This document shows positions 5,131 to 64,000 of a DNA stretch of 64,000 nt, piece after piece. Position numbers and translations under genes: made by a program. This DNA comes from Aegilops tauschii subsp. strangulata (Eukaryota; Streptophyta; Magnoliopsida; Poales; Poaceae): positions 371,301,054-371,365,053 of the forward strand of contig NC_053041.3 of assembly GCF_002575655.3 (NCBI RefSeq). Reading direction: 5' to 3'. How positions within the stretch are numbered: the first letter of the stretch is position 1; every line of letters begins with the position of its first letter. The notes below the pieces were generated by a model. It worked only from the letters and a program-made list of their open reading frames with translations, was not told the origin of the DNA and did no database searches.

Positions 5131-5244
5131 TCGAGCCCCCATGCGAGACATTGCCAACTGGTGTTGGGTTGCCTATTGATGAACAATGACCATTGCTACC
5201 ATGCGCGCAGTACGTAGAACGAGTCGAGATGTGGTGAGTCGAGC

Positions 5245-8390: not shown

Positions 8391-9909
8391 TGATACGTCC
8401 ATTTTGCATCATGTTTACCTACTGTTATTTATGATGTTTTTATCCATAATAATGCTTTTTGGAGTAATTCGATGCCTTTTCTCTCATAATATGCAATGTA
8501 CACACAAAGAGGGAGAATTCCGGCAGATGGAAATCTAGACCAGGAAAAGCTACGTCAGGCCACCTATTCTGCACAATTCCAAATGAGCTGAAACTTTACG
8601 GGGAATTTTTATGGAATATATAAGAAATATTGGAGCCAATAAGTACCAGAGGGGGCCCACCAGGTGGGCACAACCCACCTGGGCGCGCCAGCGAGCCCAG
8701 GCGCGCCCTGGTGGGTTGTGCTCCCCTCGGCCCACCTCCGGTGCCCATCTTTTGGTATATAAGTCATTTTGACCAAGAAAAATTAAGGAGAGGACTTTCG
8801 GGACGGAGCGCCGCCGTCTCAAGGCGGAACTTGGGCAGGAGCACTTTTGCCCTCCGACGGAGCGATTCCGCCGGGGGAACTTCCCTCCCGGAGGGGGAAA
8901 TCATCGTCATCATCATCACCAACAACTCTCCCATCTTGGGGAGGGCAATCTCCATCAACATCTTCAATAGCACCATCTCATGTCAAACCCTAGTTCATCT
9001 CTTGTGTTCAATCTTTGTACCGGAACTATAGATTGGTGCTCGTGGGTGACTAGTAGTGTTGATTACATCTTGTAGTTGATTACTATATGGTTTATTTGGT
9101 GGAAGATTATATGTTCAGATCCATTATGCTATTTAACACCCCTTTTATCTTGAGCATGTTCATCACTTGTGAGTAGTTACTTTTGTTCTTGAGGTCACGG
9201 GAGAAATCATGTTGCAAGTAATCATGTGAACTTGATATGTGTTCGATATTTTGATAGTATGTATGTTGTGATTCCCTTAGTGGTCTCATGTGAACATCGA
9301 CTACATGACACTTGACCATATTTGGGCCTAAGGGAATGCATTTTGGATTAGTTCTTAGATGATGGGTTGCGAGAGTGACAGAAGCTTAAACCCTAGTTTA
9401 TGCGCTATTCCATAAGGGACCGATTGGATCCAAAAGTTTAATGCTATGGTTAGAATTTATTCTTAATACTTTGCTCGTAGTTGCGGATGCTTGCGAGGGG
9501 GTTAATCATAAGTAGGAGGTTTGTTCAAGTAAGAAACAGCACCTAAGCACCGGTCCACCCACATATCAAATTATCAAAGTAGCGAACACGAATCGAATCA
9601 ACATGATGAAAGTGACTAGATGAAATTCCCGTGTACCCTCAATAACGCTTTGCTTATTATAAGAGACCGTTTTGGCCTGTCCTTTGCCTCAAAAGGATTG
9701 GGCTACCTTGCTGCACTTTTGTTACTATGATCGTTACTTGCTCGTTACAAATTGTCTTGCTATCAAACTACTCTGTTACTTACAATTTCAGCACTTGCAG
9801 ACATTACCTTGCTGAAAACAACTTGTCATTTCCTTTTACTCCTCGTTAGGTTTGACACTCTTACTTATTGAAAAGACTGCAATTGATCCCATATACTGGT
9901 GGTTCATCA
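8391..9909 (+). repeat. 5' LTR of element A
   Basis: It runs 1,519 bp from TGATACGTCCATTTTGCAT to GTGGTTCATCA and is followed 11 bases later by the primer-binding site. It is homologous along its length to 20022-21535, 24000-24915 plus 26922-27469, 39938-41411, and 58229-58237 plus 59609-60580. It contains the paired-arm and TATA promoter core at 8666-8762. The small open frames in it recur in every copy at the same place and are LTR sequence, not genes. Confidence 0.92.
8666..8762 (+). promoter_or_regulatory. GC-rich hairpin plus TATA box of A LTR
   Basis: The arms 8667-8689 and 8700-8723 are near-perfect inverted copies built on CACAACCCACCTGGGCGCGC with a loop of about ten bases. TATATAA follows at 8756-8762 and would place transcription start near 8790. 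The same arrangement is present in the other copies of this LTR. Confidence 0.7.
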
Positions 9910-11952: not shown

Positions 11953-14938
11953 TGTAACATCCCAAAAGTCTAAATCTTGGAATGTTATATTAAATAAATA
12001 GTTTTGATTGATTGCTTGATTGTGGTGTGCTTGCTTGTGTGAAATTGAGTGAAATTTGAAACTTTTTGAAAGTTAAATGAGAGGGAATAAAAGGACTTTC
12101 CCAAACTTTCAGCTTGCATTTATGATCTCCATGAATTCAAATTCATTTCATCACAAAACCCAAGAGTGAAGATGATATGACTTCTTCCATTTAATTAAAT
12201 GAAAAAGGGTTTTTGAAAAGGTTTGAATTCCATTTGAAAATATTTCAAATTCAGAAATTTTATGCAACTCAATGAGTTTCATTAGAGAAGATAAAATGAC
12301 TTCTTCAAATGCTAAGAAAGATATTTGGAAGTTTCAAAGAATCAAATTTAAAGTCCCTTTGAAAGTATTTTCAATTTGGAGTTATTGGTTTTTATTCAAA
12401 TTATTTTTCTCCAAAAATAAAATATATGGAAAATAGGGAAATATGATTCCCTACAGGAGAAAATTGGAGAGAAATAAATTTGAAATCATTTTGGTATTTT
12501 TTAAAATGATTTTTATTCGGTTTTATTGCAGCAGTAGCGCTGTTTGCTTTATTTAAATTTTTTGGCTTTTATTTGACGCTAGAAAAATGTTCATGTTGTA
12601 TGAAATCTTTTTCTGAAAATTTTGATATATTATATGCCTATAGTATATTTGTTTTTCGTTTTATTTTATTTTTTGTTTTCTGTAAAATTATTAAAAAATA
12701 AACTCTTTGGGCTAGCTGGGCCAAAGCCCAGCCGCCGGCCCGCTCCCGCGCCGCCTTCCCCGTCGTGGCCGACCAGGACTCCACCGGAGTCCGGCGCCGA
12801 CACGGCCCCCGCCGGCCCCTCCTCCAAGCCAGCCGCCCCCGGGGCCTATATAAGCCGCCGCCCCACCGCCTCCTCGACACACCGCCGCCGCCTGCCGCGC
12901 CCACCGCCGTCGCCGCCGTGACGCACCCGAGCCGCCGCCGTCTCCCCACCGTAGCCTCACCGCCCCACCCCGCCATCGCCGCTGAAGCCGCCGCCGCCGG
13001 ATCTCGCCGGTTTTTCTTGTATAAACCCTAGATCGATTTTTCCCGGTTCGATCGGTTTATTTTTTTAGGTTAGTTTATTTAGCAGACGTTCGTCCGTAAG
13101 TTCCCGGTAGCGAACGGTATTCATTAGATTAGGTTCTGCAGCGAACGTTCGTTCGTTAGATTTTTATTTTCAATTTTATTTTTGGCCAGGGATCTATCCA
13201 TGAATAGTTTTCTTACAGATTAGTCGCTAATCTTTAAACCCTTGCAACTTTTTCTCGTTTTTCCAAATCCAACGAAACCAACGCCAATTTATTCGTTATG
13301 ATCCCCTTTGTCCAGATAACCAACGTAAAATATTTTTGAAGGTTTAAAATTTGCTTTCAAACAGATTTGAATTTGAACTTCTTTTGTTCATAACTCGAGT
13401 TCTATAACTCCGATTTAATTGATTCTTTTTGCTAATTGAAGCTCTTGACCGAAACTTTCTGATAAGAACCCAATTTTGGTACTGTTAGAAATTTATTCTG
13501 TTGCAAGAGTTAATTCCTTGTTTTCGAAGTTTTCCGAGATCTTTTCTTCAATTCTTTTGCAGGAGTGCTTATGTATGCAATTGTTTGCTCACGATAGATT
13601 GAACGGATTGTGACAAGTAGAACTATCAAGAATTATGAGTGCGAAGGATCTTCATCAACAGTACAAGGCAAGTTCACACTTTGATCATATCCCTTTATTA
13701 CCCAGTTTTAATGCATTAGTTTTATCCCTCAAACATTGCATGAGTAGGATTGGTTTACATGTGGGTGTGGGAAGTAGTTGTTGAGGTAGGAACCTATTGT
13801 CTTTTATCAACCCTGGTAACATAAATTATGCTCATAATGCTTTGTTATGCTCGTAGACGTGGATTGGTATGTGAGATTCATGAAAGTTGCGAGAGTAATA
13901 TTAACCATTTGTTAAAGTTAAGGCGGCTACTTGAATACACATCTGGGTGGAATGGTTGGGGCACCCTAGAGCACCCAGTGGTTTGCCCGGGCACCTGGAG
14001 AACCCAGTGCTTTCCCAAGGGGATCCCAGAGTACCCGTGTGATCATCCTATGGAATGCCACCCAGGCTCAAAGGGATCGTAAGATTATTCATGCTAGAAA
14101 CTTCCGTGTGCAGCCACAAGCCATAATGGGCTCTGGCATAGTTGAGTATGTTGTGTGACCTCTTTCAGTGGTAGGCTAGCAGATGTAGGGGAAAGTAGGT
14201 GGTACTGTCTACCCAGAGTAAAGAGTTAATGCTTCGGAAAGACTGTGTCTCGATCATCTGTTTCTCAAACATCATGTAGTGCGAGAAATTCAACAGAGGG
14301 GATCGAGTCTTGTGGGGAAAAGTGCGCAAACCTCTGTAGAGTGTACAAACTAATCATGATTAGCCGTGTCCCCGGTTATGGACATCTTGAGTATCTGGTA
14401 TTTGAATTATTGGTTGATATCATCACTTTACTTAATGAATTTGTTGTGTTATTAATAATTTTGGGGATTGAGTTGGAGGAACCTTCTCAATAATGGCATC
14501 AACTTGGTAGAAAAATAAAATTTATTCCTTTGTTGTAGGAAAAAATTGGCTTTATGCAAAATTAAACTTAGAGCCTCCACCAACCAAATATGCATGTAGC
14601 GATAGTTATTATTCATCATTATCCTATGGTGTGAATTTGCCAGTACATTCAATGTACTGACCTACATGGCTGCAATGTCTCATATTGCAGGAATCTTACG
14701 ACGAGTAAGTGATACGTTAGGGTTACGATGTGTACACTCAACTTTGCCATTGGTGTTGCTGGGACTCCACAACTTTGTTGTTACTTCCGCTATATGGAGT
14801 GAGGTAATAGTATTTACATTAATTTATACATGTGATTTAGCTCTGTTATAAATCCTCGAGTACTGTGTGTGTTAGCATACCGATCCAGGGATGACACTTA
14901 TGCACAGAGACTTGATCCATTCGGGTCGGGTCGCTACA
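11953..14938 (+). repeat. Solo LTR S1 (2,986 bp) inserted in element A pol
   Basis: It starts TGTAACATCCCAAAAG and ends GGTCGCTACA, flanked on both sides by the 5-bp duplication CATTA (11948-11952 and 14939-14943). Joining the flanks restores the sequence seen uninterrupted in element C at 43440-43470, so both boundaries are certain. With one LTR and intact duplications it is a solo LTR left by recombination between the two LTRs of a full element. The first 700 bp are AT-rich, 12710-12990 is strongly GC-rich, and the rest is leader-like. Pro- and Arg-rich frames in the GC-rich part (12622-13031) are compositional. It is the same family as S2. Confidence 0.93.
12847..12854 (+). promoter_or_regulatory. 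TATA box of solo LTR S1
   Basis: TATATAAG lies in the GC-rich segment of the LTR, roughly 900 bp from its 5' end. It is the expected core promoter of this family and would fire rightward into the RT half of element A. Confidence 0.6.
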
Positions 14939-15790
14939 CATTAGTCCCACTCTATGTCAGCACAAGATTAATATAGAACATGATGCTAAACCCGTTGTTG
15001 ATCACCAACGTTGGTTAAATCCGAAGATGAAGGAAGTGGTAAGAACGGAAATATTAAAACTTCTGGAAGAAGGTATAATCTATCCTATAGCTGATAGTAG
15101 ATGGGTAAGTCATGTTCGTTGTGTTCCTAAGAAAGGAGGTATTACTGTTGTTCCTAATGATAAGAATGAACTCATTCCACAAAGAATTGTTACAGGCTAT
15201 AGAATGGTAATTGATTTTAGAAAATTAAACAAAGCAACTAGAAAAGATCATTACCCTCTGCCTTTTATTGATCAAATGCTAGAAAGATTATCTAAGCACA
15301 CACATTTTTGCTTGCTTGATGGATACTCTGGTTTTTCACAAATACCTGTTTCTCAACCTGATCAAGAAAAAGACCACTTTCACTTGTCCCTTTGGAACTT
15401 ATGCTTATAGATGTATGCCTTTTGGTTTATGCAATGCACCTGCTACCTTTCAAAGATGTATGACTGCTATATTCTCTGAATTTTGTGAAAAGATTTTTGA
15501 AGTTTTCATGGATGACTTTTCTGTTTATGGGAAGTCTTTTGATGATTGTTTAAGCAATCTTGATCGAGTTTTGTAGAGATGCGAGCAAACAAATCTTGTC
15601 TTGAACTGGGAGAAGTGACACTTTATGGTTAATGAAGGTATTGTTTTGGGCCATCAAATTTCTGAAAGAGGTATTGAGGTGGACAAAGCTAAGGTTGATG
15701 CAATTGAGAAAATGCCATGTCCTAAAGATATCAAAGGTATTCGTAGTTTCTTAGGTCATTCTGGTTTCTATAGGAGATTTATCAGACTTT
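14939..15790 (+). pseudogene. pol: Reverse transcriptase of element A (broken)
   Basis: After the S1 insertion the frame resumes with K-E-V-V-R-T-E-I-L-K-L-L, the start of a Ty3/gypsy RT domain. V-P-K-K-G-G, R-M-V-I-D-F-R-K-L-N and M-P-F-G-L-C-N-A-P-A-T-F-Q follow. The catalytic box is F-M-D-D-F-S at 15505-15522, the F/Y-x-D-D form with both aspartates present. One extra A near 15366-15372 shifts the frame, TAG at 15574-15576 and TGA near 15616 are nonsense changes relative to C, and a 2-base loss near 15782 breaks the thumb segment Y-R-R-F-I. Known role: it copies element RNA into DNA in cytoplasmic particles. Confidence 0.88.
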
Positions 15791-20021: not shown

Positions 20022-21535
20022 TGGTACGTCCATTTTGCATCATGTTTACCTACTGTTATTTATGATGTTTTCATCCATAAATAATGCTTTTTGGAGTAAT
20101 TCTAATGCCTTTTGTCTCATAATATGCAAGGTACACACAAAGAGGGAGAATTCCGGCAGCTGGAAATCTGGACCTGGAAAAGCTATGTCACGCAACCTAT
20201 TCTGCACAACTCCAAACAAGCTAAAACTTTACGGAGATTTTTTATCAAATATATGAGGAATATTGGAGCCAATAAGTACCAGAGGGGGCCCACTAGGTGG
20301 GTAAAACCCACCTGGGTGCGCCAGGGAGCCCAAGCGCGCCCTGGTGGGTTGTGCTCCCCTCGGCCCACCTCCGGTGCCCATCTTCTGGTATATAAGTCAT
20401 TTTGACCTAGAAAAATTAAGGAGAGGACTTTCGGGACGGAGCGCCACCGTCTTGAGGCGGAACATGGGCATGAGCACTTTTGCCCTCCGGCGGAGCGATT
20501 CCGCCGGGGAAACTTCCCTCCCGGAGGGGGAAATCATCGTCATCATCATCACCAACAACTCTCCCATCTTGGGGAGGGCAATCTCCATCAGCATCTTCAA
20601 CAGCACCATCTCATCGCAAACCCTAGTTCATCTCTTGTATTCAATCTTTGTACCAGAACTATAGATTGGTGCTTGTGGGTGACTAGTAGTGTTGATTACA
20701 TCTTGTAGTTGATTACTATATGGTTTATTTGGTGGAAGATTATATGTTCAGATCCATTATGCTATTTAATACCCCTCTTATCTTGAGCATGTTCATCACT
20801 TGTGAGTAGTTACTTTTGTTCTTGAGGTCACGGGAGAAATCATGTTGCAAGTAATCATGTGAACTTGATATGTGTTCGATATTTTGATAGTATGTATGTT
20901 GTGATTCCCTTAGTGGTGTCATGTGAATGTCGACTACATGACACTTCACCATAGTTGGGCCTAAGGGAATGCATTGTGGAGTAGTTATTAGATGATGGGT
21001 TGCAAGAGTGACAGAAGCTTAAACCCTAGTTTATGCGCTATTCCGTAAGGGACCGATTGGATCCAAAAGTTTAATGCTATGGTTAGAATTTATTCTTAAT
21101 ACTTTTCTCGTAGTTGCGGATGCTTGCGAGGGGGTTAATCATAAGTAGGAGGGCAAGTAAGAACAACACCTAAGCACCGGCCAACCCACATATCAAATTA
21201 TCAAAGTTGCGAACACGAATTGAATCAACATGATGAAAGTGACTAGATGAAATTCCCGTGTACCCACAAGAACACTTTTCTTATTATAACAGACCATTTT
21301 GGCCTGTCCTTTGCCTCAAAAGGATTGGGCTACCTTACTGCAATTTTGTTACTATTATCGTTACTTGCTCGTTACAAATTATCTTGCTATCAAACTACTC
21401 TATTACTTACAATTTCAGCACTGGCAGACATTACCTTGCTGAAAACCACTTGTCATTTCCTTCTGCTCCTCGTTGGGTTCGACACTCTTACTTATTGAAA
21501 AGAGCTACAATTGATCCCATATACTTGTGGGTCAT
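20022..21535 (+). repeat. First 3' LTR copy of element A
   Basis: It starts TGGTACGTCC right after the polypurine tract and runs 1,514 bp to GTGGGTCAT, lacking only the final CA of the family. It is then joined to the interior of minus-strand element G. Segment 20148-20408 is almost identical to 59729-59989 in element C, while neighbouring sequence is clearly more diverged. TATATAA is at 20389-20395. Confidence 0.88.
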
Positions 21536-22441
21536 GTAATTTTCTAGGAATTGAAACTTCTAATTCCAAATTTTCTTCTAAAGCATTCATCATAGCATCA
21601 ACAATATGTTTAGTAAAAGCTTTATTTTTTTCATAAGCATGGGGTGAATTTATCATGGATTGCAACAAAGAAATACAATCAATCAAAGAGCAGCTATCAT
21701 AATTAAAGTCTTTGTAATCCAAAAGAGTGGGCACATCACTAGTTAAAGTCTTGACCTCTTCAAACCCACTTTTATCAATTTTCTCAACAAGATTTTCACC
21801 CTCCGAATTCTCGGGACGCCTTCTAACTAAAGTTGGCTCTTCTCTAGTCCCTTTTTCATCAATCTTAATTTTACTAAACAAGGAATCAATAGAAGAAACA
21901 CCAATCATTTAAGATCTTCATCTTTTTTTATCTTCTAGCGAGATTGGTTTAGCAGCCATTTGATTTACTAGGGTAGCTTGTGCATTAGATATTTTTCCTA
22001 GCAAACTTTCAACAAAAGCACACTTAGATTGGAGATTGCAAACTTCTCTACTTATATCATCAAGTTATTTGGTTATAGCATCAAGCACAATGGAGTGCTC
22101 CTTAAGTTCTTCGGTAAAATATTTATTGTGCTCAAATTGTGTAGTCATATATTCCTTAGTACTTTTCTCAATTTCAAGCAAAATATTAGGGTAAGGAACA
22201 TCATAATATTTTCTTTGAGGCATCATGACTACGCAAACAAGATTGCACTCAAAAACAGATCCGACAGGAAAACAGCAAACGAAAAAGAGAGCGAATAAAA
22301 CGGCAATTTTTTGTGAAGTGGGGGAGAGGAAAACGAGAGGCAAATGGCAAATAATGTAAATTGCGAGGAGATGATATTTGTGATTAGGAACCTGGTAGAT
22401 GTTGATGATGTCTCCCCGGCAACGGCGCCAGAAATTCCTTT
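21536..22441 (-). mobile_element. Element G, 5' internal region (truncated)
   Basis: The minus-strand leader follows the G LTR. A frame starting near 22226 with MMPQRKYYDVPYPNILLEIE continues in the same register down to 21540, broken by in-frame stops at about 22065 and near 21910. It is rich in Glu, Lys and Leu and sits in gag position, but I recognise no domain. The element is cut at 21536, where it meets the end of the first 3' LTR copy of A, so most of its interior and its 3' LTR are gone. Confidence 0.7.
22413..22430 (-). other. Primer-binding site (tRNA-Asp) of element G
   Basis: The minus strand reads TGGCGCCGTTGCCGGGGA, an exact match to the tRNA-Asp complement, 11 bases inside the G LTR. 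Confidence 0.92.
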
Positions 22442-23999
22442 TGATGTCTACTAGAACTACGTCGGTATTTCCCCAAAGAGGAAGGGGTCATGCAGCACAG
22501 TGACGGTAGGTATTTCCCTCAGTGATGAGACCAAGGTTATCGAACCAGTAGGAGAACCAAGCAACACTACGTAAACAGCACCTGCACACAAATAACAAAT
22601 ACTCGCAACCCGGCATGTTAAAGGGGTTTTCAACCCCTTTCGGGTAATGGCGCCAGAAATTGGCACGTGGACGGGAGAAAGTTGTAAATATTGATAGATC
22701 GAACGCCAAATAAAATAAAGTACAGGAAGGTATTTTTGGTTTAATAGATCTAAAAATAAAAAGCAAAGGAAAATAGATCACAAAGGCAAATATATTAAAG
22801 AAGAGACCCGGGGGCCGTAGATTTCACTAGTGGCTTCTCTCGAGAAATATAGCAAACGCTGGGTAAACAAATTACTGTTGGGCAATTGATAGAACTTGAA
22901 ATAATCATGCCGACATCCAGTGAATGATCATTATATAGGCATCACGTCCAAGATTAGTAGACCGACTCCTACCTGCATCTACTACTATTACTCCACACAT
23001 CAACCGCTATCCAGCATGCATCTAGTGTATGAAGTTCATGGAGAAATGGAGTAATGCAATAAGAACAATCACATGATGTAGACGAGATCTATTTATGTAG
23101 AAATAGACCCCATCTTGTTATCCTTAATGGCAACGATACATATGTGTCGGTTCCCCTTCTGTCACTGGGATCAAGCACCGTAAGATCGAACCCATCAGAA
23201 AGCACCTCTTCCCATTGCAAGATAAATAGATCAAGTTGGCCAAACAAAACCCAAATATAGGAGAAGAAATACGAGGCTATAAGAAATCATGCATATAAGA
23301 GATCAAAGAAGACTCAAATAACTTTCATGGATAAAAAGATAGATCTGATCATAAACTCAAAGTTCATCCGATCCCAACAAACACACCGCAAAAAGAGTTA
23401 CATCATATGGATCTCCAAGAGACCATTGTATTGAGAATCAAACGAGAGAGAAGCCATCTAGCTACTAACTACGGACCCGTAGGTCTACAAAGAACTACTC
23501 ACGCATCATCGGAGAGGCACCAATGGAAGTGGTGAGCCCCTCCGTGATGGTCTCTAGATTGGATCTGGTGGTTCTGGACTTTGCGGCGGCTGGAATTGAT
23601 TTTCGTTGACTCCCCTAGGTTTCTGGAATATTGGGGTATTTATAGAGCAAAGAGGCGGTTCAGGGGGCACCCGAGGTGGGCGCAACCCACCTGGGCGCGC
23701 CTGGGCCTCTAGGCGCGCCCTGGTGGGTAGTGATCCCCTCGGAGCACCCCGAGGTGCTTCTCCGGCCCACTGGATGTCTTCTGGTCCAAAAAATCCACAA
23801 AAAGTTTTGCTGTGTTTGGACTCCGTTTGGTATTGATTTCCTGCGATGTAAAAAACATGCAGAAAACAACAACTGGCATTTGGCACTATGTCAATAGGTT
23901 AGTACCAAAAAATGATATAAAATGATTATAAAACATCCAAGAATTAAAATATAATAGCATGGAACAATCAAAAATTATAGATACATTGGAGACGTATCA
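22442..23999 (-). repeat. 5' LTR of element G
   Basis: On the minus strand it starts TGATACGTCTCCAATGTATC at 23999 and ends GTAGACATCA at 22442 (1,558 bp). The paired-arm segment is near 23678-23735 and TATAAATA at 23637-23644. Its outer end adjoins ACGTC (24000-24004), which belongs to the start of an A-type LTR. The same family sits at the same position of an A-type LTR in element C (58238-59608), there as a solo LTR. Confidence 0.9.
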
Positions 24000-24915
24000 A
24001 CGTCCGTTTTGCATCATGTTTTCCTACTGTTATCTATGATGTTTTAATGCGTAATAATGCTTTTTGGAGTAATTCTAAAGCCTTTTCTCTCATAATTTGC
24101 ATAGTACACACAAAGAAGGAGAATTTCGGCAGCTGGAAATATGGACCTAGAAAAGCTACGTCACGCAACCTATTCTGCACAACTCCAAACAAGCTGAAAC
24201 TTTACGGAGATTTTTTACGGAATATATGAGGAATATTGGAGCCAATAAGTACCAGAGGGGTCCCACCAGGTGGGCACAACCCACCTGGGCACGCAAGGGA
24301 GCCCAAGCGCACCCTGGTGGGTTGTGCTCCCCTCGGCCCACCTCCGGTGCCCATCTTCTGGTATGTAAGTCATTTTGACCTAGAAAAAAATAAGGAGAGG
24401 ACTTTCGGGACGGAGCGCCACCGTCTCGAGGTGGAACTTGGGCAGGAGAACTTTTGGCCTCCAGCGGAGCGATTCCACCAGGGGAACTTCCCTCCCGGAG
24501 GGGGAAATCATCGTCATCATCATCACCAACTACTCTCCCATCTTGCGGAGGGCAATCTCCATCAACATCTTCAACGGCACCATCTCATCTCAAACCCTAG
24601 TTCATCTCTTGTGTTCAATCTTTGTACCGGAACTATAGATTGGTGCTTGTGGGTGACTAGTAGTGTTGATTACATCTTGTAGTTGATTACTATATGGTTT
24701 ATTTGGTGGAAGATTATATGTTTAGATCCAATATGCTATTTAACACCCCTGTGATCTTGAGCATGATTATCATTTGTGAGTAGTTATTTTTGTTCGTGAG
24801 GTCACGGGAGAAATCATGTTGCAAGTAATCATGTGAACTTGATATGTGTTTGATATTTTGATAGTATGTATATTGTGATTCCCTTAGTGGTATCATGTGA
24901 ACGTCGACTACATGA
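24000..24915 (+). repeat. Second 3' LTR copy of element A, left part
   Basis: It lacks the first four bases (TGAT) of the family and begins at ACGTCCGTTTTGCAT, the G insertion target. It continues as a normal A-type LTR to CTACATGA at 24915. A TATGTAA replaces the TATATAA of other copies. The rest of this LTR is at 26922-27469, beyond H and K. Confidence 0.85.
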
Positions 24916-25398
24916 AAGCACCAATGTCGGTGTCAAAACCGGCAGATCTCGGCTAGGGGGTCCCGAACTGTGCGTCTGAGGATCGAAGGTAACAGGAGAC
25001 AGGGACACGGTATTTTTACCCAGGTTCAGGCCCTCTCGATGGAGGTAATACCCTACTTCGTGCTTGATTGACTTTGATGAATATAGGGGTTACAGGAGTT
25101 GATCTACCTCGAGATCGTAATGGCTAAACCCTAGATGTCTAGCATGTATGATTATGATTGCCCCTACGGACTAACCCCTCTGGTTTATATAGACACCGGA
25201 GGGGCCTAGGGTTGTACAGAGTCAGTTTACAGAGAAAGGAATCTAAAGATCCGAACACCAAACTTGCCATCCACGCGAAGGAGAGTCCCATCCAGACACG
25301 AGGGAGGGCCTTCTGTCTTCATATCTTCACGGCCCATCAGTCCGGCCCATCTTGAGTAATCCAGACACCCGAGGACCCTGTAATCCAGGACTCCCTCA
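24916..25398 (-). repeat. Truncated LTR H (TGAGGGAGTCC family)
   Basis: The minus strand starts TGAGGGAGTCCTGGATTAC at 25398 and ends TGACACCGACA at 24925 (474 bp). Nine further bases (24916-24924) look like the first bases after the LTR, so it is a 5' LTR plus a sliver of interior rather than a solo LTR. No matching target duplication flanks it. It contains TATATAA-type sequence in minus orientation near 25185-25190. Element family not assigned. Confidence 0.65.
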
Positions 25399-26921
25399 TG
25401 CATGATGTTATATTATCATTCTTGGATGTTTTAAAATCATTTTATAGCAAGTTTATATCATTTTTCGGGACTAACCTATTGACCCAGTGCCCAGTGCCAG
25501 TTGCTGTTTTTTTGCTTGTGATATCGCCGGAAATCAATATCAGACGGAGTCCAAACACCGCGAAACTTTTTGTGGATTTTTTATGGACCAGAATACATCC
25601 AGTGGGATAGAGAAGCACCTCGGGGGTGCCCCAAGGGGGGCAAAACCCACAAGGGCGCGCCTGGGGGCCCAGGCGCCCCCAGGTGGGTTCTGCCCACCTG
25701 GGTGGCCTCCCGCACCCCCTCTTTGTCCTGTAAATCACCAAATATTCCCAAAACCCTCGAGGCAACCCTAGATTGTAAGTTCTGCCACCGCAAGCCTCTG
25801 TATCCATGAAAACAAATCTAGACCCTGTTCTGGCACCCTACCAGAGGGGGGAATCATCACCGATGGCCATCTTCATCATCCCGGAGGCCACCATGATGAG
25901 GAGGGAGTAGTCCACCCTCAGGGCTGAGGGTTTGTACCAGTAGCTATGTGTTTGATCTCTCTATCTCTTGTGTTCTTGAGATGTCACGATCTTGATGTAT
26001 CGCGGGCTTTGTTAATATAGTCAGATCATATGGTGTTTTCCCCTCTCTATCTTGTTGTGATGAATTGAGTTTTCCCTTTGAGATTTCGTTTTATCGGATT
26101 GAATACGTTTATGGATTTGAGAGCACTTGATATATGTCTTGCATATGAATACTCGTGGTGACAATGGGGTTTCGTATTGATTCACTTGATATATTTTTTG
26201 GCACTCAACTCGCGGATTCCCGAGGTGACATTGGGTTAATCTATGCATAGGGGTTGATGCACATTCTTGTCTTTGTTTCTCCAGTAGAAACCTTGGGGCA
26301 CTCTTTGAGGTTCTTTGTGTTGGATTGAGCATTATGAATCTAAAATTATTCGGTGTTATTTTAGTACGAACTCTTGAATAGATCGAACGGAAAGAATAGC
26401 TTTGAGGTGGTTTCGTACCCTGCAAACAGTTTCGTCTTATGTTCTCCGCTAGATAGGAACTTTGGAGTGATTCTTCATCGCACTTTGAGGGATGGTTATA
26501 CGATCCAATTATATTAGCATTGTTGAGAGATTGCATTAGCGAAAGTATGGACCCTAGGCCTCAGTTTCAAGCATTGCAATACCGTTTGTACTCCGTTTTA
26601 TCAATTGCTACCTTGCTGTTTTTTATTGTTCATATTACAAAAATCAATATCTACTATCCATATTACACTTGTATCACCATATCTTCGCCGAACTAGTGCA
26701 CCTATACAAATTACCATTGTATTTGGTGTGTTGGGGACACAAAAGACTTTTTATTATTTGGTTGCAGGGTTGTTTGAGAGAAACCATCTTCACCCTACGC
26801 CTCCCACGGATTGATAAACCTTAGGTTATCCACTTGAGGGAAACTTGCTACTGTCCTACAAAACTCTACGCTTGGAGGCCCAACACGTGTCTACAAGAAT
26901 GAAGTTGCGTAGTAGACATCA
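25399..26921 (+). repeat. LTR K (truncated at its 5' end), inserted in A-type LTR
   Basis: It ends GTAGACATCA at 26921, followed by ACGGG (26922-26926). In copy K' at 60581 the left flank is ATGGG, so it went in at ATGGG/ACGGG. Its first bases are missing and replaced by H. The U3 half (CATTCTTGGATG, CCAGTGCCCAGTGCCAG) is of G type, and the half after the promoter (CAATCTAGACCCTGTTC onward) is of W1 type, making it a chimeric LTR. The paired-arm segment is at about 25648-25700. Confidence 0.82.
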
Positions 26922-27469
26922 ACGGGTTGCGAGAGTGACAGAAGCTTAAACCCTAGTTTATGCGCTATTCCGTAAGGGACCGATTGGATCCAAAAGTTTA
27001 ATGTTATGGTTAGAATTTATTCTTAATACTTTTCTCGTAGTTGCGGATGCATGCGAGGGGGTTAATCGTAAGTAGGAGGTTTGTTCAAGTAAGAATAGCA
27101 ACTAAGCACTGGTCCACCCACATTATCAAATTATCAAAGTAGCGAGCATGAATCGAATCAACATGATGAAAGTGACTAGATGAAATTCCTGTGTACCCTC
27201 AAGAACGCTTTGCTTACTATAAGAGACCGTTTTGGCTTGTCCTTTGCCTCAAAAGGATTGGGCTATCTTGCTGCAGTTTTGTTACTATTATCGTTACTTG
27301 CTCGTTACAAATTATCTTGCTATCAAACTACTATGTTACTTACAATTTTAGCACTTGCAGACATTAACTTGCTGAAAACCACTTGTCATTTCCTTCTGCT
27401 CCTCGTTGGGCTCGACACTCTTAATTATTGAAAAGACTACAATTGATCACATATACTTGTGGGTCATCA
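26922..27469 (+). repeat. Second 3' LTR copy of element A, right part
   Basis: It resumes at GGGTTGCGAGAGTGAC where LTR K ends and reaches the family end GGGTCATCA at 27469. ACTAC follows and matches the duplication left of the 5' LTR at 8386, so this is the true right end of element A. Confidence 0.9.
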
Positions 27470-28130
27470 ACTACAGAACTATATAGGCTAACAATGGTGT
27501 GAAACCAGGAGGAAGCAATTTTTTATAGTTGTAATAAGGAAGCACTTGCGTATGTACGGCTATGGCCCTAGTGGGGTACTGTCATCCTGTCCACGTAAAG
27601 TCATCTCCTAATTCCTCATGTTTGTTGACCATGTTGACAACATGAGACGACGACGCCACGTGGAGCGCAACAACTCGAAGGGTGACGGAGAGGGCCTCGC
27701 AGGCCCTACGGATGGTCTGATACATTGCTCGCTGCTCATTCAGGAAGCCAGGACCATAGGGCCACATGTCCACGATGGCATTGTCGTTCGCTTGTTCACC
27801 GGTGATTCATCCCTCCATGAGCCGGTGCTTGTTGAGGAGACGGATAGCACCTGGTCCTCCTACGCTTTCCCGAATGCTGATTCCGGCGGTGCTGGTAGCT
27901 CTTCTGCCATTAGGGCGCCGAAGTGCAGCCGCACCTTCTCTATGGTGAACATGACATGAATCGGCGCGGGCGGTGGCGCCGGCTCCTGGTCGGAAGCCTT
28001 GTCCATCGTCTAGTCCTGGCCGTTGAGCTCAGCGAGCTCACCGACGAAGAAGACGGGATTAATCAGAAAAAAGAGACGGGATTAGGAAGACCTGTGCTAT
28101 GTAGCAACTTACTGCATCTATAGCTGGACA
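27470..28130. mobile_element. Probable continuation of CACTA-1
   Basis: The sequence directly right of element A repeats motifs found left of it: a diverged AATAAGGAAGCACTTGCGT unit near 27535 and CATGTTTGTTGACC near 27618. From about 27640 to 28130 it becomes GC-rich and unlike the left side. A 113-codon frame (27618-27959) shows no motif I recognise. The CACTA right terminus was not found, so the end coordinate is arbitrary. Confidence 0.5.
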
Positions 28131-38703: not shown

Positions 38704-39307
38704 GGCCGATGGCGGTCGAACACCTTGGCGAATTTGTCTTGGAGCCTCTGTGATGAGGAATAAAAGCCAAGTGTTGAAACTTGAAACACCCAAACTGACT
38801 CATGACAAAAAATCAAAGCGTAGAAAGAGAAACCAAAGACGAAAAAATACGTAGTGAGAGTTTGTGCAACTAGGATGATATTTTGTAATAGCTTTTTAAA
38901 CAAATTTGAGAGGATGATGGTGAAGAACTCGAGAGCCAATGGTGTATTGTGGTCGTTTCCATACATTCTGCTACAGCACAACAACTCTTCTTCTGACCAC
39001 TATTGGTGTCTTGCGGTCATAAGAAGGGTTGTTACGCTGTAGCAGAATGTACGGAAATGACCACAACACACCAATGGCTTTCGAGCTCTTTGCCATCATC
39101 CTCTCTAATTCATTAAAAAAGCTGGTACAGAAAATCATCCTAGTTGCACAACCTCTCACTATGTACTATTTCGTCTTTCATTTCTCTTTCTACGCTCTGA
39201 TTTTTTGTCATGAGTCAGTTCGGTTGTTTGAAGTTTCAAAAGTTGGCTTTTAGTCCTCATTGCAGAGTCTGCCAGACAAATTCGCCAAGGTGTCGATGCC
39301 AATGGCC
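38704..39307. repeat. Large inverted repeat (arms about 290 bp, short loop) in CACTA-2
   Basis: The left arm 38704-38997 and right arm 39015-39307 are reverse complements with scattered mismatches and an unpaired centre of about 15-20 bases (TATTGGTGTC near 39001). Landmarks are ACCTTGGCGAATTTGTC in the left arm against GACAAATTCGCCAAGGT in the right, and ATTCTGCTACAGC against GCTGTAGCAGAAT. A transcript would fold into a long imperfect hairpin. Similar-looking open frames on opposite strands here simply reflect the repeat. Confidence 0.9.
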
Positions 39308-39937: not shown

Positions 39938-41411
39938 TGATACGTCCATTTTGCATCATGTTTTCCTACTGTTATTTATTATGTTTTTATGCATGATAAT
40001 GCTTTTTGGAGTAATTCTAATGCCCTTTCTCTCATAATATGCAAGGTACACACAAAAGAGGTAGAATTCCGCCAGCTGGAAATCTGGACCGGGAAAAGCT
40101 ACGCAGGCCACCTATTCTGCACAACTCCAAACAAACTAAAACTTTATAGAGATTTTTTATGGAATATATGAGGAATATTCGAGCCAATAAGTACCAGAGG
40201 GGGCCCACCGGGTGGGCACAACCCACCTGGGCGCGCCAGGGAGCCCAGGCGCGGCCTGGTGGGTTGTGCTCCCCTCGGCCCACCTTCGGTGCCCATCTTC
40301 TGGTATATAAGTCATTTTGACCTAGAAAAAATAAGGAGAGGACTTTTGGGATGGAGCGCCGCCTCTCGAGGCGGAACTTGGACAAGAGCACTTTTGCCCT
40401 TCGGCGGAGCGATTCCGCTGGGGGAACTTCCCTCCCAGAGGGGGAAATCATCGTCATCTCCAACAACTCTCCCATCTCATCTCAAACCCTAGTTCATCTC
40501 TTGTGTTCAAACTTTGTACCGGAACTATAGATTGGTGCTTGTGGGTGACTAGTAGTGTTGATTACATCTTGTAGTTGATTACTATATGGTTTATTTGGTG
40601 GAAGATTATATGTTCAGATCCAATATGCTATTTAATACCCCTATGATCTTGAGCATGATTATCATTTGTGAGTAGTTACATTTGTTCTTGAGGTCACGGG
40701 AGAAATCATGTTGCAAGTAATCATGTGAACTTGATATGTGTTTGATATTTTGATAGTATGTATGTTGTGATTCCCTTAGTGGTGTCATGTGAACGTCGAC
40801 TACATGACACTTCACCATAGTTGGGCCTAAGGGAATTCATTGTGGAGTAGTTATTATATGATGGGTTGCGAGAGTGATAGAAGCTTAAACCCTAGTTTAT
40901 GCGCTATTCCGTAAGGGACCGATTGGATCCAAAAGTTTAATGCTATGGTTAGAATTTATTCTTAATACTTTTCTCATAGTTGCGAATGCTTGCGAGGGGG
41001 TTAATCATAAGTAGGAGGTTTGTTCAAGTAAGAAAAAACACCTAAGCACCGGCCCACCCACATATCAAATTATCAAAGTAGCGAACAAGAATCGAATCAA
41101 CATGATGAAAGTGACTAGATGAAATTACCGTGTACCCTCAAGAACGCTTTGCTTACTATAAGAGACCGTTTTGGCCTGTCCTTTGCCTCAAAGGGATTGG
41201 GCTGTCTTGCTGCACTTTTGTTACAATTATTTTTACTATTATCATTAATTTCTCGTTACAAATTATCTTGCTATCAAACTACTCTGTTACTTATAATTTC
41301 AGCACTTGCAGACATTACCTCGCTGAAAACCACTTGTCATTTCCTTCTGCTCCTCATTCTGTTTGACACTCTTACCTATCGAAAAGAGCTACAATTGATC
41401 CCATATACTTG
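39938..41411 (+). repeat. 5' LTR of element C (3' end deleted)
   Basis: It runs from TGATACGTCCATTTTGCAT to CCATATACTTG at 41411. The last nine or so bases of the family (TGGGTCATCA) are missing. Paired arms are at 40208-40272 and TATATAA at 40304-40310. Confidence 0.9.
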
Positions 41412-41498
41412 TTGTCGGGGAGTGAAGCGCCTTTGGTAAGTGGAATTTGGTAAGGAAACATTTATATAGTGTGCTGAAATTTACTGTCACTTGTTACT
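41412..41498 (+). other. Leader of element C with deleted primer-binding site
   Basis: Only TTGTCGGGGA remains of the primer site (one mismatch to TTGCCGGGGA). The first eight bases TGGCGCCG, the spacer and the LTR end are missing, a deletion of about 30 bp. The leader then continues as in A to the gag start. Confidence 0.8.
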
Positions 41499-58228: not shown

Positions 58229-60580
58229 TGATACGTCTGATGTCTGCTAGAACTACGTCGGTATTTCCCCAAAGAGGAAGGGATGATGCAGCACAATGAC
58301 GGTAGGTATTTCCATCAGTAATGAGACCAAGGTTATCGAACCAATATGAGAACCAAGAAACACTACGTAAACAACACCTGCACACAAATAACAAATACTC
58401 GCAACCCGACATGTTAAAGGGGTTGTCAATCCCTCTCGGGTAAAGGCGCCAGAAATTGGCACGTGGACGGCAGAAAGTTGTAACTATTGATAGATCGAAC
58501 GCCAAATAAAATAAAGTAAAGCAAGGTATTTTGGTATTTTTGGTTTAATAGATCTAAAAATAAAAACAAAGGAAAATAGATTGGAAAGGCAAATGTATTA
58601 AAGAAGAGACTCGGGGTCCGTAGATTGCACTAGTGGCTTCTCTCGAGAAAAATAGCAAACGATGTGTAAACAAATTACTGTTAGGAAATTGATAGAACTT
58701 CAAATAATCATGATGATATCCAGGCAATGATCATTATATAGGCATCACGTCCAAGATTAGTAGACCGAATCCTGCCTGCATCTACTACTATTACTCCACG
58801 CATCGACTGCTATCCAGCATGCATCTAGTGTATGAAGTTCATGGAGAAACGGAGTAATGCAATAAGAATGATCACATGATGTAGACAAGATCTATTTATG
58901 TAGAAATAGACCCCATCTTGTTATCCTTAATGGCAACAATACATATGTGTCGGTTCCCCTTCTGTATGGATCACACCGCAAAAAGAGTTACATCATATGG
59001 ATCTCCAAGAGACCATTGTATTGAGAATCAAACGAGAGAGAGAGGAAGCCATCTAGCTACTAACTACGGACCCATAGGTCTACAAAGAACTACTCACACA
59101 TCATCGGAGAGGCACCAATGGAAGTGATTAGCCCCTTCGTGATGGTGTCTAGATTGGATCTGGTGGTTCTGGACTCTGCGGCGGCTGGAATTGATTTTCG
59201 TCAACTCCCCTATGGTTTCAGGAATATTGGGGTATTTATAGAGCAAAGAGGCGGTTCAAGGGGCACCCGAGGTGGGCACAACCCACCTGGGCGCGCCTGG
59301 GCCTTCAGGCGCGCCCTGGTGAGTTGTGCTCCCCTCAGAGCACCCCTCCAGGTGCTTCTCCGACCCACTGGATGTCTTCTGGTCCAAAAAATCCACAAAA
59401 AGTTTCGCTGTGTTTGGACTCCGTTTGGTATTGATTTCCTGCGATGTGAAAAACATGCAGAAAAAAACAACTAGCACTTGGCACTATGTCAATAGGTTAG
59501 TACCAAAAAATGATATAAAATGACTACAAAATGATTATAAAACATCCAAGAATGATAATATAACAGCATGGAGCAATCAAAAATTATAGATACATTGGAG
59601 ACATATCAACGTCCATTTTGCATCATGTTTTCCTACTGTTATTTATGATGTTTTTATGCATAATAATGCTTTTTGGAGTAATTCTAGTGCCTTTTTCTCA
59701 TAATTTTCAAGCTACACACAAAGAGGTTGAATTCCGGCAGCTGGAAATCTGGACCTGGAAAAGCTATGTCACGCAACCTATTCTGCACAACTCCAAACAA
59801 GCTAAAACTTTACGGAGATTTTTTATCAAATATATGAGGAATATTGGAGCCAATAAGTACCAGAGGGGGCCCACCAGGTGGGTAAAACCCACCTGGGTGC
59901 GCCAGGGAGCCCAAGCGCGCCCTGGTGGGTTGTGCTCCCCTCGGCCCACCTCCGGTGCCCATCTTCTGGTATATAAGTCATTTTGACCTGGAAAAAATAA
60001 GGAGAGGACTTTCAGGACGGAGCACCGCCGTCTCGAGGCGGAACTTGGGCAGGAGCACTTTTGCCCTCCGGCCGAGCAATTCCGCCGGGGGAACTTCCCT
60101 CCCGGAGGGGGAAATCATCGTCATCATCATCACCAACAACTCTCCCATCTTGGGGAGGGCAATCTCCATCAACATCTTCAGCAGCACCATCTCATCTCAA
60201 ACCCTAGTTCATCTCTTGTGTTCAATCTTTGTATTGGAACTATAGATTGGTGCTTGTGGGTGACTAGTAGTGTTGATTACATCTTGTAGTTGATTACTAT
60301 ATGGTTTATTTGGTGGAAGATTATATGTTCAGATCCAATATGCTATTTAATACCCCTGTGATCTTGAGCATGATTATCATTTGTGAGTAGTTAGTTTTGT
60401 TCGTGAGGTCACGGGAGAAATCATGTTGCAAGTAATCATGTGAACTTGATATGTGTTCGATATTTTGATAGTATGTATGTTGTGATTCCCTCAGTGGTAT
60501 CATGTGAACGTCGACTACACGACACTTCACCATATTTGGGCCTAAGGGAATGCATTGTGGAGTAATTATTAGATGATGGG
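58229..60580 (+). repeat. 3' LTR of element C, split by solo LTR G'
   Basis: TGATACGTC (58229-58237) is followed by the G' insertion (58238-59608). ACGTC is then repeated (59609-59613) and the A-type LTR continues to GATGATGGG at 60580, where K' begins. The last third of the LTR is missing. TATATAA is at 59970-59976. Segment 59729-59989 is nearly identical to A. Confidence 0.9.
58238..59608 (-). repeat. Solo LTR G' in the C 3' LTR
   Basis: The minus strand starts TGATATGTCTCCAATGTATC at 59608 and ends at 58238. It is flanked on both sides by ACGTC, a 5-bp duplication of the A-type LTR, so this is a solo LTR. Compared with G (22442-23999) it has lost about 200 bp near 58967 and is 1,371 bp long. 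Paired arms are at 59268-59325. Confidence 0.92.
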
Positions 60581-61729
60581 TGATACGTCTCCAAAGTATC
60601 TATAATTTATGAGGTATTCATGCTATTATATTATCATTCTTGGATGTTTTACAATCATTTTATAGCAACTTTATATCATTTTATGGGACTAACCTATTGA
60701 CCCAGTGCCCAGTGCCAGTTGCTGTTTTTTGCTTGTTTTTTACATCACAGGAAATCAATATCAAACGGAGTCCAAACACCGCGAAACTTTTTGTGGATTT
60801 TTTATGGACCAGAAGACATCCAGTGGGACAGAGACGCGCCTCGGGGGTGCCCCGAGGGGGGCAAAACCCACTAGGGCGCGCCTGGGGGCCCAGGCGCACG
60901 CAGGTGGGTTCTGCCCACCTCGGTGGCCTCCCACACCCCCTCTTTGTCCTATAAATCACCAAATATTCCGAAAACCCTTGAGGCAACCCTAGATTGTATG
61001 TTCCGCCGCCGCAAGCCTCTGTATCCACAAAAACCAATCTAGACCCCATTCCGGCACCCTGCCAGAGGGGGGAATCATCACCGGTGGCCATCTTCATCAT
61101 CTCGGCGGCCACCATGATGAGGAGGGAGTAGTCCACCCTCGGGGTTGAGGGTTTATACCAGTAGCTATATGTTTGTTCTCTCTCTCTCTTGTGTTCTTGA
61201 GATGTCACGATCTTGATGTATCGCGGGCTTTGTTAATATAGTCGGATCATATGGTGTTTTCCCCTCTCTATCTTGTTGTGATGAATTGAGTTTTCCCTTT
61301 GAGATTTCATCTTATCGGATTGAATACTTTTATGGATTTGAGGGCACTTGATATATGTCTTGCATAAGAATACTCGTGGTGACAATGGGGTATCGTATTC
61401 ATTCACTTGATATATGGTTTGGCACTCAACTCGCGAATTCCCGAGGTGACATTGGGGTAATCTATGCATAGCGGTTGATGCACGTTCTTGTCTTTGTTTC
61501 CCTGGTAGAAATCTTGGGGCACTCTTTGAGGTTCGTGTTGGATTGAGCATTATGAATCTAATATTATTTGGTGTCATTTTAGTACGAACTCTTGAATATA
61601 TCGAACGGAAAGAATAGCTTTGAGGTGGTTTCGTACCCTACAAACAATTTCGTCTTATGTTCTCCGCTAGATAGGAACTTTGGAGTGATTCTTCATCGCA
61701 CTTTGAGGGTTGGTTATATGATCCAATTA
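60581..61729 (+). repeat. LTR K' (3' part lost by fusion to E)
   Basis: It starts TGATACGTCTCCAAAGTATC after ATGGG (60576-60580) and has the same chimeric build as K: G-type U3, paired arms at about 60863-60923, CCTATAAATC, then W1-type sequence. It ends at ATCCAATTA (61729), where sequence switches to the inside of a minus-strand G-type LTR. The expected continuation in K is ATCCAATTATATTAGC. Confidence 0.88.
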
Positions 61730-62988
61730 ATAGATCTAAAAATAAAAGCAAAGGAAAATAGATGCGAAGGAAAATATTTTAAAGAAGAGACCCGGGGGCC
61801 GTAGATTTCACTAGTGGCTTCTCTTGAGAAAAATAGCAAACGGTGGGTAAACAAATTACTATTGGGCAATTGATAGAACTTCAAATAATCATGACGATAT
61901 CCAGGCAATGATCATTATATAGGCATCACGTCCAAGATTAGTAGACCGACTCCTGCATGCATCTACTACAATTACTCCACACATCGGCCGCTATCCAGCA
62001 TGCATCTAGTGTATGAAGTTCATGGATAAATGGAGTAATGCAATAAGAACGATCACATGATGTAGACAAGATCTATTTATGTAGAAATAGACCCCATCTT
62101 ATTGTCCTTAATGGCAACGATACATACGTGCTGGTTCCCCTTCTGTGATTGGGATCAAGCACCGTAGGATCGAACCCATCACAAAGCACCTCTTCCCATT
62201 GCAAGATAAATAGATCAAGTTGGCCAAACAAAACCCAAATATCGGAGAAGAAATACGAGGCTATAAGCAGTCATGCATATAAGAGATCGAAGAAGACTCA
62301 AATAACTTTCATGGATAAAAAGATAGATCTGATCATAAACTCAAAGTTCATCCGATCCCAACAAACACACCGCAAAAAGAGTTACATCGTATGTATCTCC
62401 AAGAGAAAATTGTATTGAGAATCAAACGAGAGAGAGGAAGCCATCTAGCTACAAACTACGGACTCGTAGGTCTACAAAGAACTACTCACGCATCATCGGA
62501 GAGGCACCAATGGAAGTGGTGAACCCCTCCGTGATGGTGTCTAGATTGGATCTGGTGGTTCTGGACTCTGCGGTGGCTGGAATTGATATTCGTCGACTCC
62601 CCTAGGGTTTCAGGAATAATGGGGTATTTATAGAGCAAAGAGGCAGTTCAGGGGGCACCCAAGGTGGGCACAACCCACCTGGGCCTCCAGGCGTGCCCTG
62701 GTGGGTTGTGCTCCCCTCAGAGCACCCCAGGTGTTTCTCCGGCCCACTAGATGTCTTCTGGTCCAAAAATAATCAACAAAAAGTTTCGCTGCGTTTGGAC
62801 TCTGTTTGGTATTGATTTCCTGCGTTGTAAAAAACATGCAGAAAATAGCAACTAGCAATTGGCACTATGTCAATAGGTTAGTACCAAAAATGATATTAAA
62901 TGACTATAAAATTATTATAAAACATCCAAGAGTGATAATATAACAGCAAGGAACAATCAAAAATTATAGATACATTGGAGACGTATCA
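61730..62988 (-). repeat. 3' LTR of element E (minus strand, truncated)
   Basis: The minus strand starts TGATACGTCTCCAATGTATC at 62988 and runs as a G-type LTR to about 61730, where it is fused to K'. Paired arms are near 62668-62712 and the TATA context is TATAAATA near 62626-62633. Its outer neighbour at 62989 is the E polypurine tract, so this is the 3' LTR. Confidence 0.87.
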
Positions 62989-64000
62989 GCATCCCCAAGC
63001 TTATTTCCTGCTCGTCCTCGAGTAGGTAAATGATAAAAATAGAATTTTTGATGTGGAATGCTGCCTAACATGTCATCTCATATTCTTTTCTTTATAGCAT
63101 GGACATTTGGACTTCTATATGGTTCAAAGCAATAGTCTAGTTTTGATATGAGACTTAAATACTCAAGCATATCAACAAGCAACCATGTCTTTAAAATATC
63201 AATGCTAAAATAAGTTATTCGTAGCCCATCATGCTCAATCATTGATCCATTCATGAAACACACTCGCATATTAGCTACACCCAATGCTCAAGTACGATCA
63301 TAGTGCCCCCTAATTGGTGCTTTATAAGAGAAGATGGAGACTCAAATTAAAAATGAAAATTGCATAAAGTAAAATAAAGGCCCTTCGCGGAGGGAAGTAG
63401 GGATTTGTAGAGGTGCCAGAGCTCAAAGCGAAAAACTTAGAGACAAAAACATTTTGAGAGGCATACTTTTCCCACCACCGAAAATGACTTAGAGCTCCCA
63501 ACACTTTCCATTCTAGATATATCATAGGCGGTTCCCGAACATAAAATAAAGTTTATTCCTTTTTCCACCATACTTTCACTTTCCATGGCTAACCGTATCC
63601 ACGGGTACACTCCACACCAACACTTTCCAAGGAATTTATTATTCTACAACATAAAGTAAATTCATTTTTCATTTCGGGACTGGGCATCCCTAATACATTT
63701 GCCTTACTCTCGTGCAATGACAAGTGAATAAACACTCATCGCGAGAATAACACATCTAGCATGGAAAATATTGGCCACCCCTTACCACCTCGCGAGCGGT
63801 ACGAGCACAAAAGAGAAATTTATTTTGAAAATTAGAGATGGCACATACAAATTTTCTTAGAACGGCAAAAGAATACCGCACATAGGTAGATATAGTGGAC
63901 TCATGTGGAAAAACTGGTTTAAAGGATTTTGGATGCACAAGTAGTGATCATACTTAGTGCAAAATGAAGGCTAGCAAAAGATTGAGAAGCGACCAACCAA
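62989..64000 (-). mobile_element. Element E, 3' internal region (runs off right edge)
   Basis: The minus strand has the polypurine tract AAGCTTGGGGATGC at 62989-63002. The region aligns with the end of the W1 interior (about 35281-36412), including the block near 63378-63415 (CCTTCGCGGAGGGAAG) and the block at 63925-64000. It is noncoding, so the short open frames here are not genes. E therefore combines a W1-type interior end with a G-type LTR. Confidence 0.82.

What the first reader, a model, noticed from the sequence alone, without database searches (positions are those of the whole stretch)
22442..27469. Same two nested insertions at identical sites in the 3' LTRs of A and C
In A, a minus-strand G-type LTR sits at ACGTC and a plus-strand K-type LTR at ATGGG/ACGGG of an A-type LTR. 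In C (58238-61729) the same two LTR types sit in the same orientation at the same two sites. A and C have different target sites (ACTAC, ACGAG), so they inserted independently. Two coincidental double hits are very unlikely, so one 3' LTR complex must have been copied to the other by unequal crossing-over or long conversion, about 34 kb apart.
Basis: partly seen in the sequence, partly recalled or inferred. Interest (0 to 1): 0.75.

Follow-up and report, generated by a model that had tools for sequence, protein, structure and literature searches.

The report
Retrotransposon LTR pile copied between neighbours
Two neighbouring wheat-type jumping genes carry the same two younger jumping genes at the same two spots, most likely because one pile-up was copied to its neighbour by a misaligned exchange; one of the two spots is also a place that such elements hit again and again.

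Summary
A minus-strand G-type LTR at ACGTC and a plus-strand K-type LTR at A(T/C)GGG sit in A-type LTRs of A and C, same base, same orientation. Shared parts differ equally: G 6.2%, host LTR 6.0%, K 6.5% (p=0.91).

The genome beyond the window changes the picture. C does not end at 61729: its true 3' LTR, followed by C's own target repeat ACGAG, ends at 71840 and carries the complex once more. C's end is a tandem duplication. A has an extra whole LTR (20022-21537), sister to its 5' LTR. A's complex-bearing LTR groups with C's LTRs (bootstrap 85-92, one conversion-like tract masked), yet ends in A's repeat ACTAC.

Best reading: the complex arose in C and was copied to A by exchange inside 3' LTRs, with a join at microhomology TCAT.

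The coincidence argument is weakened for G: six unlinked loci carry a G/K-type LTR at exactly this ACGTC, a hotspot. Common origin rests on trees, on nested and host divergence being closest within A, C and D, and on K's absence from its site in eight other LTRs examined. A genome-wide K search did not complete.

The parts
8391..9909 (+). a5: 5' LTR of element A, preceded by target repeat ACTAC (8386-8390)
20022..21537 (+). a2: whole A-type LTR (lacks last 2 bp) directly after A's polypurine tract; sister of a5, probably A's original 3' LTR
21536..22441 (-). 906 bp of G internal region with primer-binding site (name recalled), joined to a2 at 4-bp microhomology TCAT
   Evidence: 46/903 differences from the third copy
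22442..23999 (-). gA: 5' LTR of a minus-strand G element, inserted at ACGTC
24000..24915 (+). a3 left part: A-type LTR from base 5, C-type by phylogeny
24916..25398 (.). foreign piece, LTR-like by its ends (recalled), that replaces about 94 bp over the LTR/K left junction
25398..26921 (+). kA: K-type LTR lacking its first ~35 bp
26922..27469 (+). a3 right part, then ACTAC (27470-27474); matches d3 at most sites where d3 differs from a5=a2 up to LTR base 1395, A-type at 1475 and 1483
39938..41412 (+). c5: 5' LTR of element C, preceded by ACGAG; its end and the primer-binding site are deleted
58229..58237 (+). first 9 bp of C's inner 3' LTR (TGATACGTC)
58238..59608 (-). gC: solo G LTR with ACGTC on both sides; about 220 bp deleted
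59609..60580 (+). c3: A-type LTR up to ATGGG
60581..61729 (+). kC: K-type LTR, left part only
61730..62990 (-). g2: 3' LTR of a second minus G element; its left edge is the same K|G boundary that recurs at 70510 in the third copy
62995..64000 (-). internal region of that G element; it runs on to g3 (66835-68411), A-type LTR d3 (68412-69369), K (69370-71292, holding a 397-bp G fragment at 70510-70906), LTR end (71293-71840) and ACGAG, all right of the window

Best explanation
Element C inserted (ACGAG on both sides). A full G element then inserted at ACGTC (bases 5-9) of C's 3' LTR and a K element at ATGGG (bases 974-978). A misaligned exchange between C's 3' LTR and the 3' LTR of neighbour A joined the C complex to A's LTR end and A's target repeat ACTAC. 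A join at the 4-bp microhomology TCAT brought the end of A's original 3' LTR (a2) next to the middle of the copied G element. This may have been two events (unequal crossing-over, then deletion) or one repair event (strand invasion, copying, end joining). [quoted passage not shown] Later C's left G became a solo LTR, and a 261-bp patch shared with c3 appeared in a2. Shown: the structures, junctions, target repeats and divergences. Inferred: order, direction and recombination steps.
For: Equal divergence of the three shared parts: 83/1344, 55/912, 72/1111, p=0.91. Gap between host-LTR and nested-LTR divergence is 0.4-2.1 points in the 3 pairs of A, C, D, and 3.7-9.3 points in the 12 pairs with or among L038, L039, L040. 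G tree: the four local G LTRs separate from eight other copies, 94.7/94. LTR tree with outside copies (((a3,c3)85,d3)87,c5)92, (a5,a2) apart 98. a3 is C-type at 8 of 10 strict sites, A-type at bases 1475 and 1483, then ACTAC. ACTAC flanks A and ACGAG flanks C. TCAT junction, with the unbroken G sequence seen in the third copy. The K|G edge at 61730 equals that at 70510, as a tandem crossing-over predicts. The 261-bp a2/c3 tract has 1 mismatch, permutation p=0.00015 for that pair, ten pairs tested.
Against: Nominal age of the complex copy (2.50 +/- 0.17 My) is above that of A's a5/a2 pair (2.10 +/- 0.24), although A must have been in place; the gap is 1.4 standard errors. Of ten strict sites a3 is A-type at 1089 and 1475, and only 1475 fits the proposed switch. 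Support depends on masking the a2/c3 tract: unmasked, (a3,c3) falls to 51 and (a5,a2) to 65 on five LTRs, 52 and 78 on six. Without outside copies, a topology with a3 beside (a5,a2) is not rejected (AU 0.105; 0.144), and with a2 left out (a5,a3) is not rejected (AU 0.204). Host LTR is more diverged than nested LTR in the local pairs too, if less, and one search used only 179-190 bp of nested LTR. The G site is a hotspot, so one of the two coincidences is weak evidence.
Confidence: 0.7

Rival explanations
1. Independent insertions: G and K each landed separately in A's and C's 3' LTRs because both sites are hotspots.
For: The ACGTC site is a real hotspot: six unlinked loci with a G- or K-type minus LTR at the same base. 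Divergence of gA/gC (6.2%) is about that of unrelated copies. Without outside copies the LTR trees do not exclude it.
Against: G tree keeps the local copies together and puts the hotspot copies L038 and L039 outside. K at ATGGG in none of eight other A-type LTRs in which that site could be read (a5, a2, c5, L038, L040-L043). With outside copies a3 falls with C's LTRs. A and the third copy also share the G internal region (46/903).
Confidence: 0.15
2. Copying ran from A to C: the complex arose in A's 3' LTR and was transferred to C.
For: The unrooted five-LTR topology fits both directions.
Against: With L038, L040, L041 added, a3 falls among C's LTRs, 92% for (a3,c3,d3,c5). A would then need a second origin for a2, the sister of a5 (98-100% with the tract masked; 65-78% unmasked). 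d3, which has the complex, keeps C's own ACGAG.
Confidence: 0.09
3. Element A is an ordinary three-LTR complex inserted as one unit (template switching), and the rest is later nesting.
For: Three A-type LTRs between two ACTAC repeats, as in the Triticeae complexes of PMC1950507 (passages).
Against: That model needs the outer LTRs to be the most alike; here a5 pairs with the inner a2, and the three tested trees with (a5,a3) as sisters are rejected (AU 0.005 or less, 12 trees tested). It does not explain the complex shared with C. With a2 left out (a5,a3) is not rejected (AU 0.204).
Confidence: 0.05

Closest known systems
Recombinant complexes of adjacent LTR retrotransposons in Triticeae (Sabot and Schulman 2007, PMC1950507, abstract and passages seen)
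   Same: Third LTR, attributed to unequal recombination between neighbours; 20 such complexes counted in about 7 Mb
   Different: Here the exchanged LTR carried two nested elements, and A kept equal target repeats on both sides
Tandem LTR-retrotransposon structures (PMC11899658, passages seen)
   Same: LTR arrays flanked by one target repeat; C's 3' end is an array
   Different: Crossing-over in C would have run between nested G sequences, not between the element's own LTRs
Same-position nested pairs surveyed in 12 plant genomes (PMC6911290, sections 7 and 8 and passages read)
   Same: Nesting has preferred regions
   Different: There similar nested copies always differed by at least 50 bp and LTRs were least targeted; here the base is identical, in an LTR
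Gene conversion among LTRs (PMC7251063, passages seen)
   Same: The a2/c3 tract is a conversion-like patch
   Different: That paper finds conversion within elements much more frequent than between elements; here it is between elements

Membership tests
LTR-retrotransposon nested insertion | TG...CA ends with a 5-bp target repeat | tested here: met
   gC: ACGTC both sides; L039: TGATACGTG|G|ACGTCC with one base changed; K in the third copy: ATGGG both sides
Product of unequal exchange between elements | Recipient LTR is a mosaic of donor and own sequence, ending in the recipient's target repeat | tested here: inconclusive
   a3 C-type at 8 of 10 strict sites, A-type at the end (1475, 1483) plus ACTAC, but A-type also at 1089
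Product of unequal exchange between elements | Copied LTR groups with donor LTRs, not with its own mate | tested here: met
   (((a3,c3)85,d3)87,c5)92; (a5,a2) apart 98; rests on masking the a2/c3 tract and on the outside copies
Template-switching complex | Outer LTRs most alike | tested here: not met
   a5-a2 5.5%, a5-a3 6.8%; (a5,a3) sister trees rejected
Insertion hotspot (G site) | Independent insertions at the same base elsewhere | tested here: met
   L038-L043, six unlinked loci; L042/L043 may be one event
Insertion hotspot (K site) | Independent insertions at the same base elsewhere | tested here: inconclusive
   0 of 8 other A-type LTRs; the genome-wide junction search did not complete

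The most novel reading that the evidence does not exclude
The start of these LTRs (TGAT|ACGTC, bases 5-9) is a base-exact, orientation-biased landing site for a set of related gypsy-like families whose own LTRs begin with the same nine bases, so their integration machinery may recognise LTR ends. Such hotspot nests then act as dispersed homology that drives crossing-over between neighbours.
Probability: 0.3. Interest if true: 0.6.

Novelty: new member of a known kind. Interest (0 to 1): 0.42.

Why it matters
A nested insertion shared at one base is naturally read as a near-unique mark of common descent. This locus shows both sides: a case shared by copying, and a site at which the same kind of nest arises repeatedly. 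Which LTR is taken as a mate (a2 or a3; c3 or d3) also changes how an element is dated. The hotspot, if confirmed by counts, makes a target-choice question for plant gypsy-like elements directly testable.

Tried and rejected
Dating alone: rejected as a test, because complex divergence (6.2%) equals that of unrelated copies.

A inserted into the G element of an older complex: left of A (2500-8390) a six-frame comparison with the window found similarity only to the insertion at 11.9-12.7 kb, none to G or K internal sequence, and five ORFs there had no Pfam match. The middle of the G internal region is not in the window, so this is weak. ACTAC also speaks against it.

61729 as a simple deletion between K and G: my first reading (notes); dropped when the same K|G edge appeared in the third copy.

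Public collections: viral contigs 0 hits; genome contigs 4 hits to a 19-base pattern, none similar to the window, about the number expected by chance by my own estimate. Searching papers for the LTR start: 70 papers, 10 listed, none on these elements by title. G000 is 4.10 Gb.

On re-checking: the ACGTC position was corrected from bases 4-8 to 5-9; the statement on nested against host divergence was too strong and is now given in numbers; for that reason the confidence went from 0.74 to 0.70 and the first rival from 0.12 to 0.15.
Full report
What was checked. Self-alignment shows 22442-26511 and 58238-61729 collinear. Both have a minus G LTR ending at ACGTC of an A-type LTR and a plus K LTR at A(T/C)GGG. 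G and K LTRs begin TGATACGTC and end ...ACATCA.

Anatomy the finding left out. Element A is flanked by ACTAC (8386-8390, 27470-27474) but has three A-type LTRs: a5, a2 and a3. a2 follows A's polypurine tract and is complete but for 2 bp. It is then joined to 906 bp of G internal sequence, whose primer-binding end leads into gA. So G in A is the 5' LTR of a G element, while in C it is a solo LTR with both ACGTC repeats. In A, about 94 bp over the left K junction were replaced by a foreign piece.

Divergence. Substitutions: gA/gC 83/1344 (6.2%), a3/c3 55/912 (6.0%), kA/kC 72/1111 (6.5%); homogeneity p=0.91. Background is similar: gA/g2 5.9%, gC/g2 7.3%, a5/c5 6.4%; A against C along the elements: 5' LTR plus internal 272/3480, internal blocks 62/1117, 154/1900, 107/1552. 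At 1.3e-8 per site and year (recalled) the complex pair is 2.50 +/- 0.17 My, a5/a2 2.10 +/- 0.24, c5/c3 2.32 +/- 0.33.

Beyond the window. The genome search answered and placed the window on contig C7 of G000 (4.10 Gb). In that list (41 matches, a capped list) gA's best other match is 2.8 kb right of the window (93%); gC has 91%. Fetched DNA shows a third complex: g3, d3, K with a 397-bp G fragment inside it, the LTR end, then ACGAG. ACGAG is C's left target repeat, so C spans 39938-71840 and d3 holds its 3' LTR end. The edge K|G at 61730 is the same edge as at 70510. [quoted passage not shown] The unbroken G internal sequence in the third copy shows that a2 and G in A meet at a shared TCAT. 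A's K lacks the G fragment, so A's copy probably predates it (inference). Distances to the third copy: gA/g3 84/1553, a3/d3 87/1442, kA/kD 97/1483, c3/d3 51/954, G internal 46/903.

Trees. With the a2/c3 tract masked in a2, five LTRs give (a5,a2) 100 and (a3,c3) 92; masked in c3 instead, 96 and 73; unmasked, 65 and 51. AU over all 15 topologies (tract masked): best ((a5,a2),(a3,c3),c5) 0.961; ((a5,a2),(c3,c5),a3) 0.144; each of the 12 topologies that break (a5,a2) has p-AU below 0.03, though two of them pass the SH test. With a2 left out, the four-LTR test favours (a3,c3) but does not reject (a5,a3) (AU 0.204). Six LTRs: (a3,c3,d3) 75, (a5,a2) 99; unmasked 42 and 78; of 12 trees tested, one with a3 beside (a5,a2) keeps AU 0.105. 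Nine LTRs, with L038, L040, L041 from other chromosomes, tract masked: (((a3,c3)85,d3)87,c5)92, (a5,a2) apart 98. G: gA, gC, g3, g2 against six copies nearest to a 459-bp piece of gA, split 84-88; with L038 and L039 added, 94.7/94 (the 196-bp L040 piece falls inside and is too short to weigh). Three G sites are fixed for one base in the four local copies and another in the six. On three G copies alone the pattern is near star-like: private sites g2 37, gC 34, gA 25 of 1032.

Mosaic of a3. At ten sites where a5=a2 differs from d3=c5 (tract excluded), a3 is C-type at eight and A-type at 1089 and 1475. Right of K, four further sites (1103, 1143, 1195, 1395) match d3 against a5=a2, a one-base gap at 1483 matches a5, and several other sites are mixed. 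Together with ACTAC this suggests a switch to A's own LTR between 1395 and 1475; one strict site and one gap carry it, so it is suggestive only.

Patch between a2 and c3. 261 bp (alignment columns 128-388; window 20148-20408 and 59729-59989) with one mismatch; the longest-run permutation gives 0.00015 for that pair among ten pairs tested. It shows exchange between these elements, or with a common donor.

Hotspot. A 121-bp junction query returned 40 scored places of 495 candidates. Two were local (gA, g3), six others spanned the junction into A-type LTR; the rest matched the G end with at most 15 bases beyond it, or the LTR part only. gC itself was not listed, so the list is a lower bound. The six (L038-L043): L038 a G element in the 5' LTR of another A-type element; L039 a solo G with its left repeat visible; L040 a G piece in a 5' LTR; L041 a K-type element; L042 and L043 diverged relatives (about 75%). 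None of the five in which the K site could be read has K there (L038, L040-L043); nor do a5, a2, c5. Host LTR (first 420 bp) exceeds nested LTR (last 190 bp) in divergence in all 36 pairs: by 0.4-2.1 points within A, C, D (nested 4.5-5.6%, host 5.7-7.7%), by 3.7-9.3 points in the 12 pairs with or among L038-L040 (for example L038-L039: 5.0%, 14.3%). Pairs with L041 (K-type, deletion in its host LTR) and with L042/L043 compare different families; L042-L043 (19.7%, 23.2%) may be one event. So the G site is hit repeatedly, yet A, C and D look like one hit. The six G copies near gA elsewhere that were fetched (L007-L012) do not sit in an A-type LTR at ACGTC (0 of 6).

Literature. Sections and passages seen only: PMC6911290, PMC7251063, PMC11899658, PMC1950507. 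The searches listed no paper that I recognised from titles and abstract starts as describing either this copied complex or this LTR-start hotspot; some listings were capped and the library lacks most subscription journals.

Conclusion. The shared double nest is real and most likely copied from C to A by exchange in the LTRs. The kind of event is known. The repeatedly used ACGTC site is the more surprising part, and it needs counts that could not be obtained.

Noticed in passing
LTR bases 5-9 of A-type LTRs; L038-L043: G- or K-type minus-strand LTRs recur at the same base (TGAT|ACGTC) at six unlinked loci.
   Followed up: partly
window 20148-20408 and 59729-59989: a2 and c3 share a 261-bp tract with one mismatch, against about 6% elsewhere.
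   Followed up: yes
window 38720-39293: Inverted repeat of 279-bp arms, 86% complementary, 16 bp apart.
   Followed up: no
window 41412: C's 5' LTR end and primer-binding site are deleted.
   Followed up: no
window 11952-14939: Insertion in A's internal region, with inverted similarity to 3349-4238.
   Followed up: no
window 44572-45981 and 52749-54148: LTR pair (95%) of another element nested in C's internal region.
   Followed up: no
right of the window, 70510-70906 in window numbering: 397-bp fragment of a G LTR inside K, with about 25 bp of K missing; no target repeat seen, perhaps repair filler.
   Followed up: partly
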